The notes below the pieces were generated by a model that worked only from the letters and a program-made list of their open reading frames with translations, was not told the origin of the DNA and did not search any database. From NCBI RefSeq assembly GCF_013402815.2, contig NZ_CP058601.1, positions 2,790,001 through 2,854,000 on the forward strand: a DNA stretch of 64,000 nucleotides, given 5' to 3'. The DNA is from Natrinema halophilum (GTDB lineage: Archaea > Halobacteriota > Halobacteria > Halobacteriales > Natrialbaceae). Each line of letters begins with the position of its first letter. Position 1 is the stretch's first letter. Position numbers and translations under genes: made by a program. This document shows, one piece after another, positions 2,999-17,230 of the stretch.

Positions 2999-4069
2999 TC
3001 ACACGTCTCCGTCGTCACCTTCACGCCACGAGTCCGGGACATCGATAACGTACCGACCGTCTTCCTGGAGGGAGATGATGTACTCGTCGCGGTTGTAGAG
3101 TTCCATAAGGTTGAGTTCGTACTGTCCTGGTCGAACGATTTTGATGCTCTCGAACTGTTCGTTGAGTTCCGCGCGAAGATCTTCGATCGAAGGGCGATCG
3201 CCGCTCGGTTCGCTCACGACCCGTCCGTGTTCGGGAGGCTGGCCGTCGTTACCACCCTCGGGAGGCAGATCGTTACCATCTACATCAGACGTTTCTGTGT
3301 CACCCGACATTTCGACTGAGCCTCTGGTATCGGTAGTACGCTCCAAGCGATTTCGATCGGTAGCCTCCGAGTTGGTTGGGATGTCGTCCGACGGGACCAC
3401 TTCGCTACGGGCGTTGGCCTGTGCCGAATTCTCGTCGTCTTCAAGAGAGGGGTTGGAGGCGTCCGGAGATGGGTTCGACTGATCGGCGACCGGATCGGCC
3501 TGTTCTTCATGATCGTCGTCCGAAATATCGATCGAAGATCCGGATCGGTCCTCAGGCCGCCGCGCCGTTTCGGGCCACTCCGGGAACTCCCCAGTTCTCG
3601 TTGATTTCTCTTCGCTGTCCTCTGCTTTTCCGCGAGTCGGCCAGGAGCCATTCGGCTGAGAGGATGCCGTTGTTGGCCCGGAATAGTGTTGTTCGTCAGA
3701 GTCCGCTCCATTCCGAGAAGAATTCTCAGCGGGTGCCACCGGATCTTCAGCCGGGCTTTCAGACGAGTCCGCTGATACCCACTCCCGAACTGTCTCCGCG
3801 GCTCGCGCAGTGACGCTGTTCGACGCAGACGACGCGGATCGCTCTGGAGAACCGGCAGCATCGGTCGATCCCGCCGAGTCGACGGCGGTGTCCCCCTTCC
3901 CAGAAGTCGTGACCGAACCCGAATCACCACCCTCGTCGAACGATTCAGTTGCGGCCGCGGCAGTCGGCGCAAACTGGAATTTGTTGCCGCCGCAGTCAGG
4001 ACAGCCCGACAGCATCTCCTTGGAGCCGTCGGCGAACGTCCGGCCGCAGTTCGTACACTGATGTGGCAT
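2999..4069 (-). CDS. arvC: ArvC/OapC zinc-ribbon protein
   Basis: A 356-aa protein with an N-terminal zinc ribbon (CTNCGRTF...CPDCGGNKF, residues 5-30), about 230 residues of acidic Ser/Asp/Glu-rich low-complexity linker, and a conserved C-terminal segment (IEDLRAELNEQFESIKIV...YELNLMELYNRDEYIISL, about 290-345). This is the layout of OapC (origin-associated protein), also called ArvC. The gene is last in the arvA-arvB-arvC operon; its ATG overlaps the arvB stop by one base (TAATG). From memory, ArvABC was linked to extracellular vesicle production in Haloferax. The role of ArvC is unclear. Confidence 0.85.
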   Translation of the reverse strand: MPHQCTNCGRTFADGSKEMLSGCPDCGGNKFQFAPTAAAATESFDEGGDSGSVTTSGKGDTAVDSAGSTDAAGSPERSASSASNSVTARAAETVREWVSADSSESPAEDPVAPAENSSRNGADSDEQHYSGPTTASSQPNGSWPTRGKAEDSEEKSTRTGEFPEWPETARRPEDRSGSSIDISDDDHEEQADPVADQSNPSPDASNPSLEDDENSAQANARSEVVPSDDIPTNSEATDRNRLERTTDTRGSVEMSGDTETSDVDGNDLPPEGGNDGQPPEHGRVVSEPSGDRPSIEDLRAELNEQFESIKIVRPGQYELNLMELYNRDEYIISLQEDGRYVIDVPDSWREGDDGDV

Positions 4070-8951: not shown

Positions 8952-9911
8952 TTAGCGACTGTGTCGATCGATGGTCACCGCGGCACCGGCGATACCGGCG
9001 ACGCCGCCAACGGCGGCAAATCCGCCATTCCATCCGAACCCGGGAGCACCAGTCTCTGCGGGCGTCGGCGATGCCGTAGCCGTTGCAGGTGACGCTCCCT
9101 GTAGCGGTGGGCTCGACGGATATTCGGGAACGAGAATCCCGCCGAGAAGTCTATCGAAGGTCAATCGGATCTTGCCGAGCCACGGAATTCGGTACTTCGA
9201 TTTCCCTTTGATCCACTCGGTTTTGACGATCGAAGTATCGGCGCCACTGGTTCTCCCGATCTGGTCGTAACTGGGATTGTTGTCGCCCTTGGTAACGAAT
9301 CCGTCGTGAGGAGCAGGACAACTCGCGACTTCTGTACACGTCGCACCGTCGGTAAACTCAGGATTGGCCTTGGTATTGACCCACTTGTCTCCCTCCTCGA
9401 CCCAGAAATGGGCGCGATGGATCACCGGCGTATCAAATCCACTACCATCGGGCTTGAAGACGACAACGTCACCGGCTTTCCCGAACTTGGTATAGCCCGT
9501 CTCCTGCCCTTGCTCGAGGGTGACGACGCCGGTTCCTTCGACGGACCCGTCGCCGACGAATCTGCCTTCCTCGACGACGAATACCAGATCACCCCGTTCC
9601 ATGTGCGGTTGCATGCTTCCGCTCTCGACGGCGACGAGAGGGGGCCAGATGCCGCTTACTCCGAACAGAAGAAGGCCGACAACGGCGACGATGGCGACGC
9701 TGCTCAGTATATCGCGAATCATCACCACGTTCTCGTCGTTGGTACCGAGGAACCAGCGAACGAAGCCGTCGTCGGCGATCGTAACGGCGTCAGAATCAGA
9801 ATCAGATCGAGTTGTCTCCTCCGACCTGTGAGCGCGACCGCCGATTTGGTTCCGTCGGTCGGGTTCGTCGCCAGAATCGTCAGGGGGGTTGTCGGTGCTA
9901 GAACCGCTCAT
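8952..9911 (-). CDS. signal peptidase I, S26 family (paralogue 1)
   Basis: A 319-aa membrane-anchored type I signal peptidase of the archaeal/ER Sec11 kind, which cleaves Sec signal peptides outside the membrane. After an acidic cytosolic N-terminus (about 85 residues) there is one transmembrane helix, then VESGSMQPHMERGDLVFV with the nucleophile Ser, VIHRAHFWVEEG with the catalytic His, and FVTKGDNNPSYDQ, which holds the conserved Asp pair region. A second hydrophobic stretch and Ala/Pro/Gly-rich tail end the protein. The ATG at 9911 (MSGSSTDN) is preferred over the TTG-type upstream start at 9938. A paralogue lies immediately upstream. Confidence 0.88.
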   Translation of the reverse strand: MSGSSTDNPPDDSGDEPDRRNQIGGRAHRSEETTRSDSDSDAVTIADDGFVRWFLGTNDENVVMIRDILSSVAIVAVVGLLLFGVSGIWPPLVAVESGSMQPHMERGDLVFVVEEGRFVGDGSVEGTGVVTLEQGQETGYTKFGKAGDVVVFKPDGSGFDTPVIHRAHFWVEEGDKWVNTKANPEFTDGATCTEVASCPAPHDGFVTKGDNNPSYDQIGRTSGADTSIVKTEWIKGKSKYRIPWLGKIRLTFDRLLGGILVPEYPSSPPLQGASPATATASPTPAETGAPGFGWNGGFAAVGGVAGIAGAAVTIDRHSR

Positions 9912-9975
9912 CGTAACTCGCTTTGACCGGCCCAACAATCAACTTTCTGTTCAGAGGAATACTGAATGGGCCAAA

Positions 9976-10854
9976 CTATGAGCGGCCCGTATCAGTTCCG
10001 GCCGCTACCACGAATAGAACGAGTGCGAGTATACTCGATGCACCGACGATAGCGATCGATCCGAAACCGGTCGCCATCCGTATCGAGTCGATCGTCAGTC
10101 GAATCTGACCGATCCACGGAACTCGAGTCATCGCTTTGCCGGTCACCCAGTGGGGGCTGACGACGGTCGTCTCCGCACCCGAATGCGGGACCTGGTCGTA
10201 CGCCTCGTTCGCATCACCTTTCGTTACGAACCCGTCGTGGGATGCTGGACACGACGGGATATCCGTGCAGGTTGCTCCATTCATCAAACCCGGATCAGCC
10301 GCCGTTTGGACCCAGTTTTCGCCGTCTTCCACCCAGAAGTGGGCGCGGTGGATCACCGGCGTGGCCGTCGGATCGCCGTTGGGCCGAAAGATGATAACGT
10401 CTCCCGGGTTGTTGAATTTCTGATACTCACTTTCCTGGCCACGATCGAGGGTGACGACACCGGTTCCGTCGATGGCGGCGCCGTCGGCGAATCGGTCTTC
10501 TTCGACGATGAAGACGAGGTCGCCTGTCTGCATGTTCGGCGACATACTGCCGCTTTCGACGGCGACCAGTACCGGAAACTGGCCGCTGATCGCGAAGAGA
10601 AGCAGGCTGGCGACGGCGACACCGACGAAGGCCATCGCAATGTTCCGACTCACGGCAACCATGCGGTCGTCGGTCTCGAGAAGCCAGCGACCGATCCCAT
10701 CCTCGATTCTGACCGCGTCGGATCTACCGTATCGAGACGTGGTGTCGGATCTCGTCTCGTTCTCGTCGTCCGCTATCGTCACGCCGGGTCTCGGGTCCTC
10801 ATTCCGAGAGTCGGGCTGATCGAAATTCCGTTTCCCGGCGTCGGGACCGTCCAT
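9976..10854 (-). CDS. signal peptidase I, S26 family (paralogue 2)
   Basis: A 292-aa second type I signal peptidase with the same plan: acidic N-terminus, transmembrane helix, VESGSMSPNMQTGDLVFIV with the catalytic Ser, VIHRAHFWVEDGENW with the His, FVTKGDANEAYDQV, then a C-terminal membrane helix. It is clearly homologous to the gene 65 bp downstream, so the pair arose by tandem duplication. The most divergent parts are the N-terminal tails and the C-terminal segments, which may give different substrate ranges or membrane topology. Confidence 0.88.
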   Translation of the reverse strand: MDGPDAGKRNFDQPDSRNEDPRPGVTIADDENETRSDTTSRYGRSDAVRIEDGIGRWLLETDDRMVAVSRNIAMAFVGVAVASLLLFAISGQFPVLVAVESGSMSPNMQTGDLVFIVEEDRFADGAAIDGTGVVTLDRGQESEYQKFNNPGDVIIFRPNGDPTATPVIHRAHFWVEDGENWVQTAADPGLMNGATCTDIPSCPASHDGFVTKGDANEAYDQVPHSGAETTVVSPHWVTGKAMTRVPWIGQIRLTIDSIRMATGFGSIAIVGASSILALVLFVVAAGTDTGRS

Positions 10855-13491: not shown

Positions 13492-14657
13492 CGAAGTTCG
13501 GCGGAACGAGTCTTGGCAGTGGCGATCGGATCAACCGCGCCGCGGATTCTATCGCGGCCGCGGTCAAGGACGGCCACGAAATCGCGGTCGTCGCCAGTGC
13601 GATGGGGTCGACCACTGACGAACTACTCGACGAAATTACGTTCGAAACCGACGAAGCCGACCGGGCCCAGATCGTCAGCATGGGTGAGCGGACGTCGGTT
13701 CGAATGCTCAAGGCCGCGCTGTCGGCCCGCGGAATCGACGCGATGTTCCTCGAGCCGGGTAGTGACGACTGGCCCGTCGTGACCGACGAGTACGGCGAGG
13801 TCAACGTCGAAGAGACCCAGAAACGCGCCACGAACGTCGCCGCTGAACTCGATGAGACGGTCCCCGTTATCACCGGCTTCCTGGCGGAAGGACCCGACGG
13901 CTCGATTACGACGCTCGGTCGCGGCGGCAGCGACACCACGGCGGTTATGATGGGCAAGTACATGGACGCCGACGAAGTCGTTATCGTGACGGACGTCGAG
14001 GGCGTCATGACCGGCGATCCCCACGTCGTCGAAGGGGCTCGTAACGTCGGCGAAATCTCCGTCGACGAGCTTCGAAACCTCTCGTTCCGCGGGGCCGAAG
14101 TCGTCGCACCGTCCGCGTTGTCGTACAAAGGCGGAAAGCTCGACGTTCGCGTCGTTCATTACCAGCACGGTGATCTCCTCTCGGGCGGGACCAGCATCGA
14201 AGGCGAGTTCAGCAACCTCGTCGACCTGCGCGAGCGTCCCCTCGCCTGCCTGACCATCGCCGGCCGCGCGATCCGAAACCAACCGGGCATCTTCAATCAC
14301 CTCTCGGAGGCACTCGCGGAGAGCGACGTCAATATCGACGCCGTCGCCAGCGGAATGGACACAGTCACGTTCTACATCGACGAATCAGAGGCCGAACGCG
14401 CCGAAAACATCCTCCACCGCGAGGTCATCGCTCGCGACGAACTCTCGAGCGTCACCGTCGACTCCCCGATCGCCGTCGTTCGGGTGACCGGCGGCGAACT
14501 CCCGAACCAGCCGGGAATCATAAGCGAGATCGTCAACCCGCTCGCCGAGGCCCGCATTCACCTGCAGGACATCATCACGAGCGCGACGAGCGTCGCCCTC
14601 TTCGTCAACTGGGACGACCGGGAGGAAACGCTCGAGTTGACCCAGGACCTGTTCTAG
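13479..14657 (+). CDS. lysC: aspartate kinase
   Basis: A 392-aa enzyme phosphorylating L-aspartate, the first step of the Lys/Thr/Met/Ile pathway. The N-terminal kinase domain shows KFGGTSLGS (6-14) and the substrate region GRGGSDTTA. The C-terminal part has two ACT domains (about 255-320 and 325-390), where LPNQPGIISEIVNPLAEA is characteristic; these bind the feedback-inhibiting amino acid. The start MRVVAKFGGTSLGSGD fits the family exactly. An 18-codon ORF overlaps the start. Confidence 0.95.
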   Translation: MRVVAKFGGTSLGSGDRINRAADSIAAAVKDGHEIAVVASAMGSTTDELLDEITFETDEADRAQIVSMGERTSVRMLKAALSARGIDAMFLEPGSDDWPVVTDEYGEVNVEETQKRATNVAAELDETVPVITGFLAEGPDGSITTLGRGGSDTTAVMMGKYMDADEVVIVTDVEGVMTGDPHVVEGARNVGEISVDELRNLSFRGAEVVAPSALSYKGGKLDVRVVHYQHGDLLSGGTSIEGEFSNLVDLRERPLACLTIAGRAIRNQPGIFNHLSEALAESDVNIDAVASGMDTVTFYIDESEAERAENILHREVIARDELSSVTVDSPIAVVRVTGGELPNQPGIISEIVNPLAEARIHLQDIITSATSVALFVNWDDREETLELTQDLF

Positions 14658-14776
14658 GTTCGACCGGGGCTTGGCTCGACAAAGCAGGTTTCGAACGGCC
14701 GTCGGGACGCTGGTCCGTCGACACTCTTTGGAGCCGTTACACGGCCATTGTACGTGCTCGAAGCCTATCCACAGAA

Positions 14777-14881
14777 ATGGCGGCGCTCCTCGACCGAACG
14801 ATCGAGAGCGACATACCAGCCGAAGACCTCCTCGAGGTGATTCGACGACCACTACCAACGAGGAGGTACCAGATCGAGTAA
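14777..14881 (+). pseudogene. small ORF, possible remnant
   Basis: 34 codons starting MAALLDRTIESDIPAEDLLE, with amphipathic character and acidic residues, so it reads better than random. No start signal or known family. It may be a fragment of a larger decayed gene. Confidence 0.25.
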
Positions 14882-14997
14882 TCCAGAGAGCCCGTTCGCG
14901 TGTCTAGTCTGTCGCAGCGACAACGGCCACCACTGTACCGAACAACTGGCGCTCCATAAGCAGTTGACCGCTGTATCAAGTCTGTGGGGGCGCGAGG

Positions 14998-15039
14998 AAT
15001 ATGTGTGGGAGTGCCTATCTAAAATCACGCACACATATT
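14998..15039. promoter_or_regulatory. inverted repeat, candidate operator
   Basis: AATATGTGTG (14998-15007) and CACACATATT (15030-15039) form a perfect 10-bp inverted repeat with a 22-base gap, upstream of the Tat-exported gene. A dimeric regulator could bind both halves. No regulator gene is adjacent. Confidence 0.4.
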
Positions 15040-15105
15040 TAGCTGTCACTGTAGATAATTTCCAATAACGTAACATTTACAATAAAACAGTATTAATTCT
15101 AATAT

Positions 15106-16116
15106 ATGAGTAATAAAATAAACCGCAGACGATTCGTACAGACAAGTGGTGCTGTTACCGGTCTGGCTGGATTTAGTGGACTTGCATCCGCTCACGATCG
15201 CGAACACGGTATCGAGAGCAATATCGACGTCAACGTCGAGACTGTCACTTCCAACGGAACGCAATATACCGCGTCGATCGCTCACAACCTAGAGACGGGA
15301 GAGAAAAACGGAACCATCCTCTCGGTTGAGGATTCCTCCAATCAGTCTGCCGGAGAGTTCGAGCCACTGGCATCCGACAGTACACAGCCGTACGAGATTT
15401 CCAATGCTGTTCTCGAGCGTCTCGACGAGAGTGCGTTCGAGAATGCCACTTCGACCGGCAACACCAGTCGGGTCAGAACAGCCGATGCGAGCTCGAGTAG
15501 CAACGGCCTCTGGGGCCAACTCAGGGACGCGAGCAACGCCAGTGCTGGCTCGAATACGGTCAGGATTCAAAAAGAAGAAGAACTCCTCGTGCATGTCGCA
15601 AAGGAGATCAAAGCAGGAGTGAAAGATTCGATAGACCAACTCGGAGCATATTATCTAAAAAGTGCAGCAGATAGGGACTGTGACTATTTCAAAAACGATA
15701 CTCACCATCAATTAGGAGTGTGTATCGGCTACGAACAGGTACTGGCAGAATATACTGAAGCCGCTATTAGTGGTATTCTTGGTGCCCTGATTGGCTCTGT
15801 TGGTGGTATCAAGGGTGCTTTTGTCGGTGGTCTCGTCGGAGGAGTCGCTGGAAAGGCTGTCGGCGACCTCAAGGATTCGACCGATTTAACCCTCATTCTC
15901 TGTGACAAAGATAACTGCTCCTTCTTTGGATACGGACCCTGTAAACCAGAGATAGACGTCTTCGTAAGCGGATACTGGTTCGACGTAAATCGAGAACTCC
16001 TCCACGTTCCCACTCCAAATGTCAAGCCTCCACAGAACCATGTTCCCGGGTCACATCTCGATATGTTCCCGACTCCCGATGAAGGCTACTACGAGATATT
16101 CTATATTTCCGACTGA
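15106..16116 (+). CDS. Tat-exported glycine-zipper protein (halocin-like candidate)
   Basis: A 336-aa protein of no recognised family. It begins with a Tat signal (NRRRFVQTSGAVTGLAGFSG, residues 6-25) and a likely cleavage site after LASA (29). Residues 30-160 are hydrophilic. About 160-190 is an amphipathic region; 219-253 is a hydrophobic hairpin with a dense glycine zipper (GILGALIGSVGGIKGAF...GGLVGGVAGKAVG), as seen in membrane-inserting toxins and some bacteriocins. Five Cys occur in the last 150 residues (192, 206, 266, 271, 279) and none earlier. The next gene (85 bp downstream) encodes a tiny two-helix membrane protein. Toxin/immunity is an inference. Composition is AT-richer than its neighbours. 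Confidence 0.7.
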   Translation: MSNKINRRRFVQTSGAVTGLAGFSGLASAHDREHGIESNIDVNVETVTSNGTQYTASIAHNLETGEKNGTILSVEDSSNQSAGEFEPLASDSTQPYEISNAVLERLDESAFENATSTGNTSRVRTADASSSSNGLWGQLRDASNASAGSNTVRIQKEEELLVHVAKEIKAGVKDSIDQLGAYYLKSAADRDCDYFKNDTHHQLGVCIGYEQVLAEYTEAAISGILGALIGSVGGIKGAFVGGLVGGVAGKAVGDLKDSTDLTLILCDKDNCSFFGYGPCKPEIDVFVSGYWFDVNRELLHVPTPNVKPPQNHVPGSHLDMFPTPDEGYYEIFYISD

Positions 16117-16200
16117 TTCCCGATAAGCACCCAAGATTGATTTAATCCCACATCGAATGATTTCAGTAGATAACCAGGCCGAACTAAAGTGTGATCCCGA

Positions 16201-16431
16201 ATGAGTAACAAACTAACCCAAATCTGGGAGAAGGCCGACAGCGAGTGGCAACGTCCAAAAAGTGGGAAACTAATAACCGCTCTTTTGGTTGGAGTAGCTG
16301 TATACGAAGCATTGTATATAACCGACGGTCTCCTTGGAGCAGGATTCGTGACTCAGGTAGTGGTACTCACCATTTTTGTAGGTATAACGGTAGTAGGATC
16401 GAACTATATCCTGAAAAGTTTTGGATGGTAA
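16201..16431 (+). CDS. two-helix membrane peptide (immunity candidate)
   Basis: A 76-aa protein with a charged N-terminus (MSNKLTQIWEKADSEWQRPK), two predicted membrane helices (about 24-46 and 50-70) and a short tail. No family is recognised. It follows the glycine-zipper protein by 85 bp on the same strand, and both begin MSNK. Small two-helix membrane proteins next to pore-forming peptides are often immunity proteins, hence the suggestion. Alternatively it is unrelated. Confidence 0.6.
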   Translation: MSNKLTQIWEKADSEWQRPKSGKLITALLVGVAVYEALYITDGLLGAGFVTQVVVLTIFVGITVVGSNYILKSFGW

Positions 16432-16444
16432 TCAGGGGAAACCC

Positions 16445-16498
16445 CACCCCATCGCGTCCGTAACTCACGGTCGGAGGAACACCTGAAGCGATGGGGTG
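16445..16498. repeat. 11-bp inverted repeat with nested hairpin
   Basis: CACCCCATCGC (16445-16455) pairs perfectly with GCGATGGGGTG (16488-16498). Inside, CCG...CGG (CCGTAACTCACGG, 16458-16470) and AGGAACACCT can form smaller stems. Lying just after the 76-aa gene it may be a terminator, a small RNA, or an element end. An ORB-like motif begins 11 bases later. Confidence 0.5.
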
Positions 16499-16508
16499 TG
16501 TATAGAGA

Positions 16509-16532
16509 ACAGTTGAAACAGTGGGGGTGGGT
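16509..16532 (+). repeat. isolated ORB-like sequence
   Basis: ACAGTTGAAACAGTGGGGGT then GGGT keeps the CAGTTGAAAC core and G-string of the ORB but differs at one core position. It is about 10 kb from oriC1, in the accessory patch. Chance similarity cannot be excluded. Confidence 0.35.
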
Positions 16533-16705
16533 AGCGTCGAACCAGAGGTGAGACATGCTGAAAAGCGAAAAGCCTGGTTAGAGGGGCTAGAACGGTTTTT
16601 ACGGATTAGTTGCATTCAGCGAAACTCCCATTCTCGAGGGTATTCCGAGAGTAATGTAGCGGTAGTCCCAGCGTAACGAAGGGGGAAAGTGGTGGAGGCG
16701 GAGCT

Positions 16706-17230
16706 ATGAGCACCGATTCGAACGTGACGGAGGTATTCGAAACGGTCGAGGCCGATCCGGATGCGATACTCGAGGCCTACGACGTGGAATCACCGGCGGA
16801 ACTCGTCGAAAGCGGTGGCGACCACGAAGCGACGACCGATCCCGCGATCGATGCGGACGACGAGACTGCGGGGACGCTGTTCGCCTCCCTCCAGGCGATG
16901 GCGGTCGACGCGGCAGAAGCGAGTGCAGGATCGGACGGAAATGGTCGACCGGATTCGACACCGACGATTACGCAGTCGTCCGAGAGCGACAGCGGTTCGG
17001 CCGACGCAGCGCGCGTTGCGGAACAGGCGGTGTATACCGCGTCGGAAACCGACGATTCGCCCGCGAACGTGATGGCGAGTGCACCCGATTCGGATGGGAC
17101 ATTGACACTCCTCGGCCCCGAACCGACTACGACGCGAGTTTCAAACGACGCCTTCGGCCTCGCGGATTCGGCGGGCGATCCGTCGGAATTTCAGTGGTCG
17201 GATCCGGAACCGGCCGAGACCCGCCGCTGA
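16706..17230 (+). CDS. hypothetical acidic haloarchaeal protein
   Basis: A 174-aa highly acidic protein (MSTDSNVTEVFETVEADPDA...) with short conserved-looking helices at residues 5-35 and 50-75 (DDETAGTLFASLQAMAVDAAEA) and low-complexity Asp/Ser/Thr-rich stretches elsewhere. No signal peptide or membrane segment. Codon usage is typical of the chromosome, which supports a real gene. Function unknown. Confidence 0.6.
   Translation: MSTDSNVTEVFETVEADPDAILEAYDVESPAELVESGGDHEATTDPAIDADDETAGTLFASLQAMAVDAAEASAGSDGNGRPDSTPTITQSSESDSGSADAARVAEQAVYTASETDDSPANVMASAPDSDGTLTLLGPEPTTTRVSNDAFGLADSAGDPSEFQWSDPEPAETRR

What the first reader, a model, noticed from the sequence alone, without database searches (positions are those of the whole stretch)
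15106..16431. Possible new Tat-exported glycine-zipper toxin with a two-helix immunity peptide
A 336-aa protein with a clear Tat signal, a hydrophobic glycine-zipper hairpin near residues 219-253 and five Cys confined to the C-terminal half is followed by a 76-aa membrane protein. Known halocins (such as HalC8) are Tat-exported and Cys-rich, but this sequence has no similarity that I recognise. The patch is AT-rich relative to the chromosome, as expected for transferred defence or competition genes.
Basis: partly seen in the sequence, partly recalled or inferred. Interest (0 to 1): 0.7.

Follow-up and report, generated by a model that had tools for sequence, protein, structure and literature searches.

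The report
Haloarchaeal secreted toxin and immunity pair
A salt-loving archaeon carries a two-gene cassette that most likely makes an exported, membrane-attacking protein toxin and a tiny membrane protein that protects its maker; related cassettes, and lone copies of the protective gene, are scattered through haloarchaea, which makes an almost untested kind of archaeal warfare testable.

Summary
Window 15106-16116 encodes a 336-aa Tat-signal protein (RRRF) with a glycine-zipper hairpin at residues 217-254 and five Cys, all after residue 190. A 76-aa, two-helix membrane protein follows at 16201-16431. The pair sits on about 1.9 kb of AT-rich DNA that most congeners lack at this site. It is no isolated orphan. 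Full-length relatives occur in scattered haloarchaeal genomes and plasmids. A wider superfamily shares the C-terminal domain: Cys, His, hydrophobic hairpin, Thr, Asp. In 13 of 13 readable loci a small membrane gene lies 7-108 nt downstream; among other genes this was seen in 3 of 239. Those partners fall into at least five unrelated families and diverge in step with the exported protein. Tandem partner copies, a truncated toxin beside an intact partner, an IS-broken toxin and lone partner genes all occur. That asymmetry is what a toxin-immunity system predicts. The C-terminal domain matches no Pfam, NCBIfam or PDB family and is not halocin C8. My reading: a halocin-like, Tat-exported, membrane-active toxin with a dedicated membrane immunity protein. 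Toxicity, protection and the pore mechanism are inferred, not shown.

The parts
14658..16600 (.). Extra DNA (about 1.9 kb) present here and absent between the same two flanking genes in congeners; carries the pair
   Evidence: blastn: flanks match G399, G400 and G353 up to 14656-14658 and from 16601-16604, with only about 86-112 nt between them there; aspartate kinase gene and 174-aa gene close together in other congeners
15106..16116 (+). Predicted Tat-exported halocin-like toxin precursor, 336 aa
   Evidence: ORF; homologues E 1e-33 to 1e-73 in scattered genomes and plasmids
15106..15192 (+). Tat signal peptide, residues 1-29, RRRF motif
   Evidence: sequence; RR invariant in alignment A3; TIGR01409 15.6 bits against cut-off 16.7
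15211..15330 (+). Small N-terminal beta-rich domain (about residues 36-75), three predicted strands; possible pro- or receptor-binding part
   Evidence: conserved in alignments A1/A3; strands in a low-confidence model
15568..16113 (+). C-terminal domain (residues 155-336), predicted beta-beta / helical hairpin / beta-beta, no PDB match
   Evidence: model pLDDT 77, pTM 0.78; Foldseek and VIA-align without a significant match
15754..15867 (+). Glycine-zipper hydrophobic hairpin, residues 217-254; G241 and G245 invariant among the closer relatives
16201..16431 (+). Predicted membrane immunity protein, 76 aa, two transmembrane helices
   Evidence: ORF; TM segments 24-42, 47-65; homologues beside the toxin and as lone genes
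16445..16498 (+). Strong hairpin 14 nt after the partner stop codon, possible end of the transcript
   Evidence: inverted repeat 14 nt, 93%; 89-nt stretch folds at -32 kcal/mol; function not tested

Best explanation
The 336-aa protein is a secreted antagonistic toxin of the halocin kind and the 76-aa protein is its dedicated immunity protein. Proposed working: the precursor folds in the cytoplasm with its Gly-zipper hairpin packed against a four-stranded sheet, held by disulfides in this member; it is exported folded through Tat; outside the producer the hairpin is released and inserts into the membrane of related haloarchaea, where GxxxG contacts let copies assemble and permeabilise it; the two-helix partner sits in the producer's membrane and blocks that insertion or assembly. 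Shown here: Tat motif, domain architecture, conserved pairing, coupled divergence, decayed toxins beside intact partners, lone partner genes, patchy gain. Inferred: toxicity, membrane target, pore formation and the protective role.
For: Pairing: a small membrane ORF with 2-4 hydrophobic segments (one partner passes the threshold for only one) lies 7-108 nt downstream in 13 of 13 readable loci, against 3 of 239 other ORFs in the same DNA (7 of the 8 focal ORFs that pass the same filter are positive). Partner divergence tracks toxin divergence (Mantel r 0.74, p 0.0002). Partners form at least five families without detectable similarity to each other, as for polymorphic immunity genes. G341 has a frameshifted toxin followed by two related partner copies; G302 keeps only the toxin C-terminus beside an intact 85-aa partner; on pR1SE2 the toxin is cut by an ISH3-like element. 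Partner homologues stand alone in G004, G242, G064, G349, G192 and G113, with no toxin trace within several kb; some of these copies are themselves truncated or frameshifted. No intact toxin without a small membrane gene nearby was seen. Patchy gain with a nearly empty site in congeners. Tat export and a helical hairpin at the C-terminal end parallel halocin C8, whose precursor is Tat-exported (PMC11509114).
Against: No activity data. The hairpin is at or below the usual hydropathy threshold in this member, so membrane insertion is not certain. The C-terminal model is only moderately confident and from 14 sequences. Coupled divergence and adjacency would also arise for any two-gene unit whose products work together. 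For halocin C8, immunity is reported to lie in the precursor itself (HalI), so a separate immunity gene is not required in every halocin system (PMC11509114). In G172 the small membrane gene is convergent, not co-directional, and in G251 only an upstream four-helix ORF is seen.
Confidence: 0.78

Rival explanations
1. The pair is a secreted or cell-surface protein and its small membrane anchor, chaperone or export helper, with no role in killing.
For: Adjacency and coupled divergence fit any obligate two-gene unit.
Against: An export or anchoring helper should be conserved in sequence, not fall into at least five unrelated families. Lone partner genes and partner genes beside broken toxins make no sense for a helper of a lost client.
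Confidence: 0.12
2. Toxin, but self-protection resides in the N-terminal part of the same precursor, as reported for HalI of halocin C8; the small membrane protein has another role.
For: Precursor has a conserved small N-terminal domain of unknown role; HalC8 precedent (PMC11509114).
Against: N-terminal region is unrelated to Hac8_like_N (PF22862 hits the control P0010 but not this protein). Lone partner genes persist without the precursor. HalC8-like genes themselves have a 68-aa two-helix gene 19-24 nt downstream on two plasmids, so a membrane partner may be general.
Confidence: 0.1
3. Toxin with a non-pore mode of action: the conserved Cys/His/Asp residues and the sheet form an enzymatic or receptor-blocking domain, and the hairpin is only an anchor.
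For: Invariant C192, H200, T262, D267 and H312 in the closer alignment; the sheet surrounds the hairpin in the model.
Against: No match to any enzyme fold; across the superfamily only C192 and T262 remain invariant and the rest vary; the partner is a membrane protein, which fits a membrane-acting toxin better.
Confidence: 0.2
4. Chance neighbours: a degenerate Tat protein and an unrelated small ORF.
For: The region is AT-rich and patchily distributed.
Against: Independent searches with each protein return the same adjacent loci; background frequency of this arrangement is about 1%.
Confidence: 0.01

Closest known systems
Halocin C8 family (TIGR04449, N-terminal domain PF22862)
   Same: About 300-aa Tat-signal precursor, N-terminal part plus a C-terminal part with a hydrophobic hairpin, plasmid and chromosomal, haloarchaeal; two plasmid copies also have a 68-aa two-helix gene directly downstream.
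   Different: No sequence relation: profile comparison aligns only the signal peptide; neither curated model hits this family; one invariant Cys instead of a Cys-rich core; immunity of HalC8 is reported to be in the precursor itself (PMC11509114).
Halocin H4 of Haloferax mediterranei
   Same: Halocin in the larger size class, 30-35 kDa (PMC11509114), thought to perforate the cell surface (PMC6759562).
   Different: Sequence relation not tested: a remembered HalH4 sequence found no record in the plasmid collection, so no comparison could be made.
HmHapP (HFX_0892), protease-activated precursor
   Same: Secreted haloarchaeal antagonistic precursor that needs proteolysis (PMC12893001).
   Different: Active part is a short N-terminal helical peptide of a roughly 235-aa mature protein; no partner gene described in the parts read; no sequence was available to compare.
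Predicted archaeal conflict systems (Makarova et al. 2019, mBio 10:e00715-19)
   Same: From memory: that survey used locus organisation to nominate uncharacterised archaeal families as archaeocins or toxins.
   Different: The paper is not held here, so whether this family is on its list could not be checked; the family has no Pfam or NCBIfam model.

Membership tests
Halocin C8 family | C-terminal Cys-rich halocin C8 domain (TIGR04449) | tested here: not met
   No hit at E up to 5; positive control P0010 hits at 9.5e-12
Halocin C8 family | N-terminal Hac8_like_N domain (PF22862) | tested here: not met
   No hit at E up to 5; control P0010 hits at 1.6e-45; profile comparison aligns the signal peptide only
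Halocin (functional class) | Carries an export signal (Tat or Sec) | tested here: met
   RR motif and hydrophobic stretch; RR invariant in alignment A3; export itself not measured
Halocin (functional class) | Inhibits other haloarchaea | not testable with these tools
   needs culture assay
Toxin-immunity pair | Immunity gene adjacent to the toxin gene | tested here: met
   13 of 13 readable loci against 3 of 239 background ORFs
Toxin-immunity pair | Immunity gene may occur alone, intact toxin alone does not | tested here: met
   Lone partners in six or more genomes, truncated toxin beside intact partner; the two less clear toxin loci, G172 and G251, still have small membrane ORFs nearby
Toxin-immunity pair | Partner protects against the toxin | not testable with these tools
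   needs expression in a sensitive strain
Gly-zipper domain families (PF13441, PF13488) | Score above the curated cut-off | tested here: not met
   19.7 against 28.9 bits and 17.3 against 25 bits

The most novel reading that the evidence does not exclude
A previously unnamed superfamily of haloarchaeal Tat-exported toxins with a new fold, in which a glycine-zipper hairpin is hidden between two pairs of strands so that the folded protein can pass through Tat harmlessly. It is paired with polymorphic membrane immunity proteins that spread on their own as resistance genes.
Probability: 0.4. Interest if true: 0.75.

Novelty: new variant of a known kind. Interest (0 to 1): 0.62.

Why it matters
Few halocins have been linked to genes and fewer have a known mode of action or immunity. 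A family with a conserved, separable partner, lone partner genes in non-producers, and members in named strains (Haloferax alexandrinus BNX82, halophilic archaeon DL31) makes toxin, immunity and resistance in archaea directly testable. It would also ask how a hydrophobic hairpin is carried by Tat, which exports folded proteins.

Tried and rejected
The search for related loci with the single sequence found no relatives in genome contigs: the family is too diverged for exact peptide patterns. Many hits at E 1e-3 to 1e-2 match only the Tat signal or Gly-rich stretch and were not counted. No phage record matches. The full-length fold was too weak, pLDDT 55; the C-terminal model was better but gave no significant match in PDB or viral libraries (best VIA Z 3.8), so no fold family is claimed or excluded. 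PDB sequence search: nothing. Halocin H4 could not be located from a remembered sequence. Mobile-element ends (direct or inverted repeats) at the borders of the extra DNA were not found.

Full report
What is there. The window holds two adjacent plus-strand genes, 15106-16116 (336 aa) and 16201-16431 (76 aa), 84 nt apart. The first begins MSNKINRRRFVQTSGAVTGLAGFSGLASA, a Tat-type signal that scores just below the curated cut-off of TIGR01409 but whose RR pair is invariant among relatives. It has Cys at 192, 206, 266, 271 and 279, and a Gly-rich hydrophobic stretch at 217-254. The second has two hydrophobic helices at 24-42 and 47-65. GC is 50.5% and 43.7%, against 60.6% for the window.

Recent gain. 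In all 29 genomes of the genus searched the flanking aspartate kinase gene is present. In many of them a homologue of the next gene (16706-17230) lies close behind it. Nucleotide alignment shows flank matches ending at window 14656-14658 and resuming at 16601-16604, with about 86-112 nt between them in the three closest congeners aligned. About 1.9 kb, carrying the pair, is therefore extra DNA here. No repeats mark its ends.

Relatives of the exported protein. A search of 392 genomes of the order gave strong full-length matches only in G211, G066, G320, G350 and G163 (E 1e-33 to 1e-73). Plasmid records add H. alexandrinus pBNX82-3, DL31 phalar01 and H. lacusprofundi pR1SE2, the last cut by an ISH3-like element. 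Profile searches added a second, diverged copy in G211 and further members in G341, G172, G295, G344, G267, G047, G198 and G251. Within the closer family C192, H200, G204, G241, G245, T262, D267, G289 and H312 are invariant. In the wider set the shared core is C192, a His-x-x-x-Gly, the hydrophobic hairpin and T262. Profile-profile comparison supports the link of two outlying pairs to the main family over the C-terminal region (probability 96% and 99%).

The partner. In all 13 loci where the reading frames are clear, a co-directional ORF of 73-132 aa lies 7-108 nt downstream. Twelve of these partners have two to four hydrophobic segments; the G211 partner passes the threshold for one. The same arrangement was found for 3 of 239 other long ORFs in the same DNA, against 7 of 8 focal ORFs under the same filter. 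Toxin and partner similarities correlate across loci (Mantel r 0.74, p 0.0002), which linked inheritance alone would also produce. The partners fall into groups with no detectable similarity between them: the window type; G211b/G341; G267/G047; G344/G295; G198; possibly G350. G341 carries two related partner copies behind a frameshifted toxin. G172 has a convergent small two-helix ORF instead, and G251 has only an upstream four-helix ORF.

Asymmetry. A search with the partner alone recovered the window, G211 and G066 at the toxin loci. A profile of seven partners recovered these plus G163, G320 and G302, and also genes in G004, G242, G064, G349, G192, G113 and G368. Around the lone genes in the first six of these, no toxin-family trace is found in about 8 kb of sequence, while G302 keeps only the last part of a toxin beside an intact partner. 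The G192 gene and a second G349 copy are truncated or frameshifted. Toxin remnants without a clear partner also occur (G406, G103). Partner without toxin is thus common, and intact toxin without a small membrane gene nearby was not seen. This is what is expected if the partner is immunity, and hard to explain if it is an export helper or anchor.

Structure. The C-terminal domain was modelled with 14 sequences at mean pLDDT 77 and pTM 0.78: two strands, a helical hairpin, two strands. Neither Foldseek nor VIA-align gave a convincing match. A weak or missing match does not prove a new fold. No Pfam, NCBIfam or PDB family is met.

Mechanism. The best reading is an exported, membrane-active toxin whose zipper hairpin is folded away during Tat export and inserts into target membranes, with the small membrane protein blocking it in the producer. 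The architecture, pairing and asymmetry are shown; the toxicity, target and pore are inferred. Pore formation specifically I put near one half.

Comparison with known systems. Halocin C8 shares the plan (Tat precursor, C-terminal hairpin), and on two plasmids even a 68-aa two-helix gene directly downstream. But the sequences are unrelated, so this is not a member of that family. The window's own genome also holds two halocin C8-like genes elsewhere. HmHapP (PMC12893001) is a different kind of protease-activated precursor. Makarova et al. 2019, which from memory predicted many archaeal toxins by locus organisation, is not held, and may already list some of these proteins as candidates.

Noticed in passing
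G000:C1:2906366-2906578 and 2732424-2732621 (L111, L112), outside the window: The window's own genome carries two halocin C8-like genes above the TIGR04449 cut-off, so it may be armed with several halocins.
   Followed up: no
L088:2804-3010, L089:2799-3005: Halocin C8-like genes on Halobacterium and Haloferax plasmids are followed by a 68-aa two-helix membrane gene, a possible overlooked partner although HalC8 immunity is attributed to the precursor.
   Followed up: partly
L086:3907-4752 (-) and 3644-3820 (-): A 281-aa Tat protein with a Cys-rich C-terminus and a 58-aa membrane gene behind it in G412; no family model hits, possibly another halocin type.
   Followed up: partly
L032:5466-6446: The closest homologue (G211) appears to have a small deletion near its start codon; the twin-arginine motif then lies upstream of the first in-frame ATG, so it may be inactivated or mis-sequenced.
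   Followed up: partly
8952-9938 and 9976-10854, minus strand: Two adjacent genes that look like signal peptidase I-type proteins, upstream of the pair on the other strand; no family search was run.
   Followed up: no
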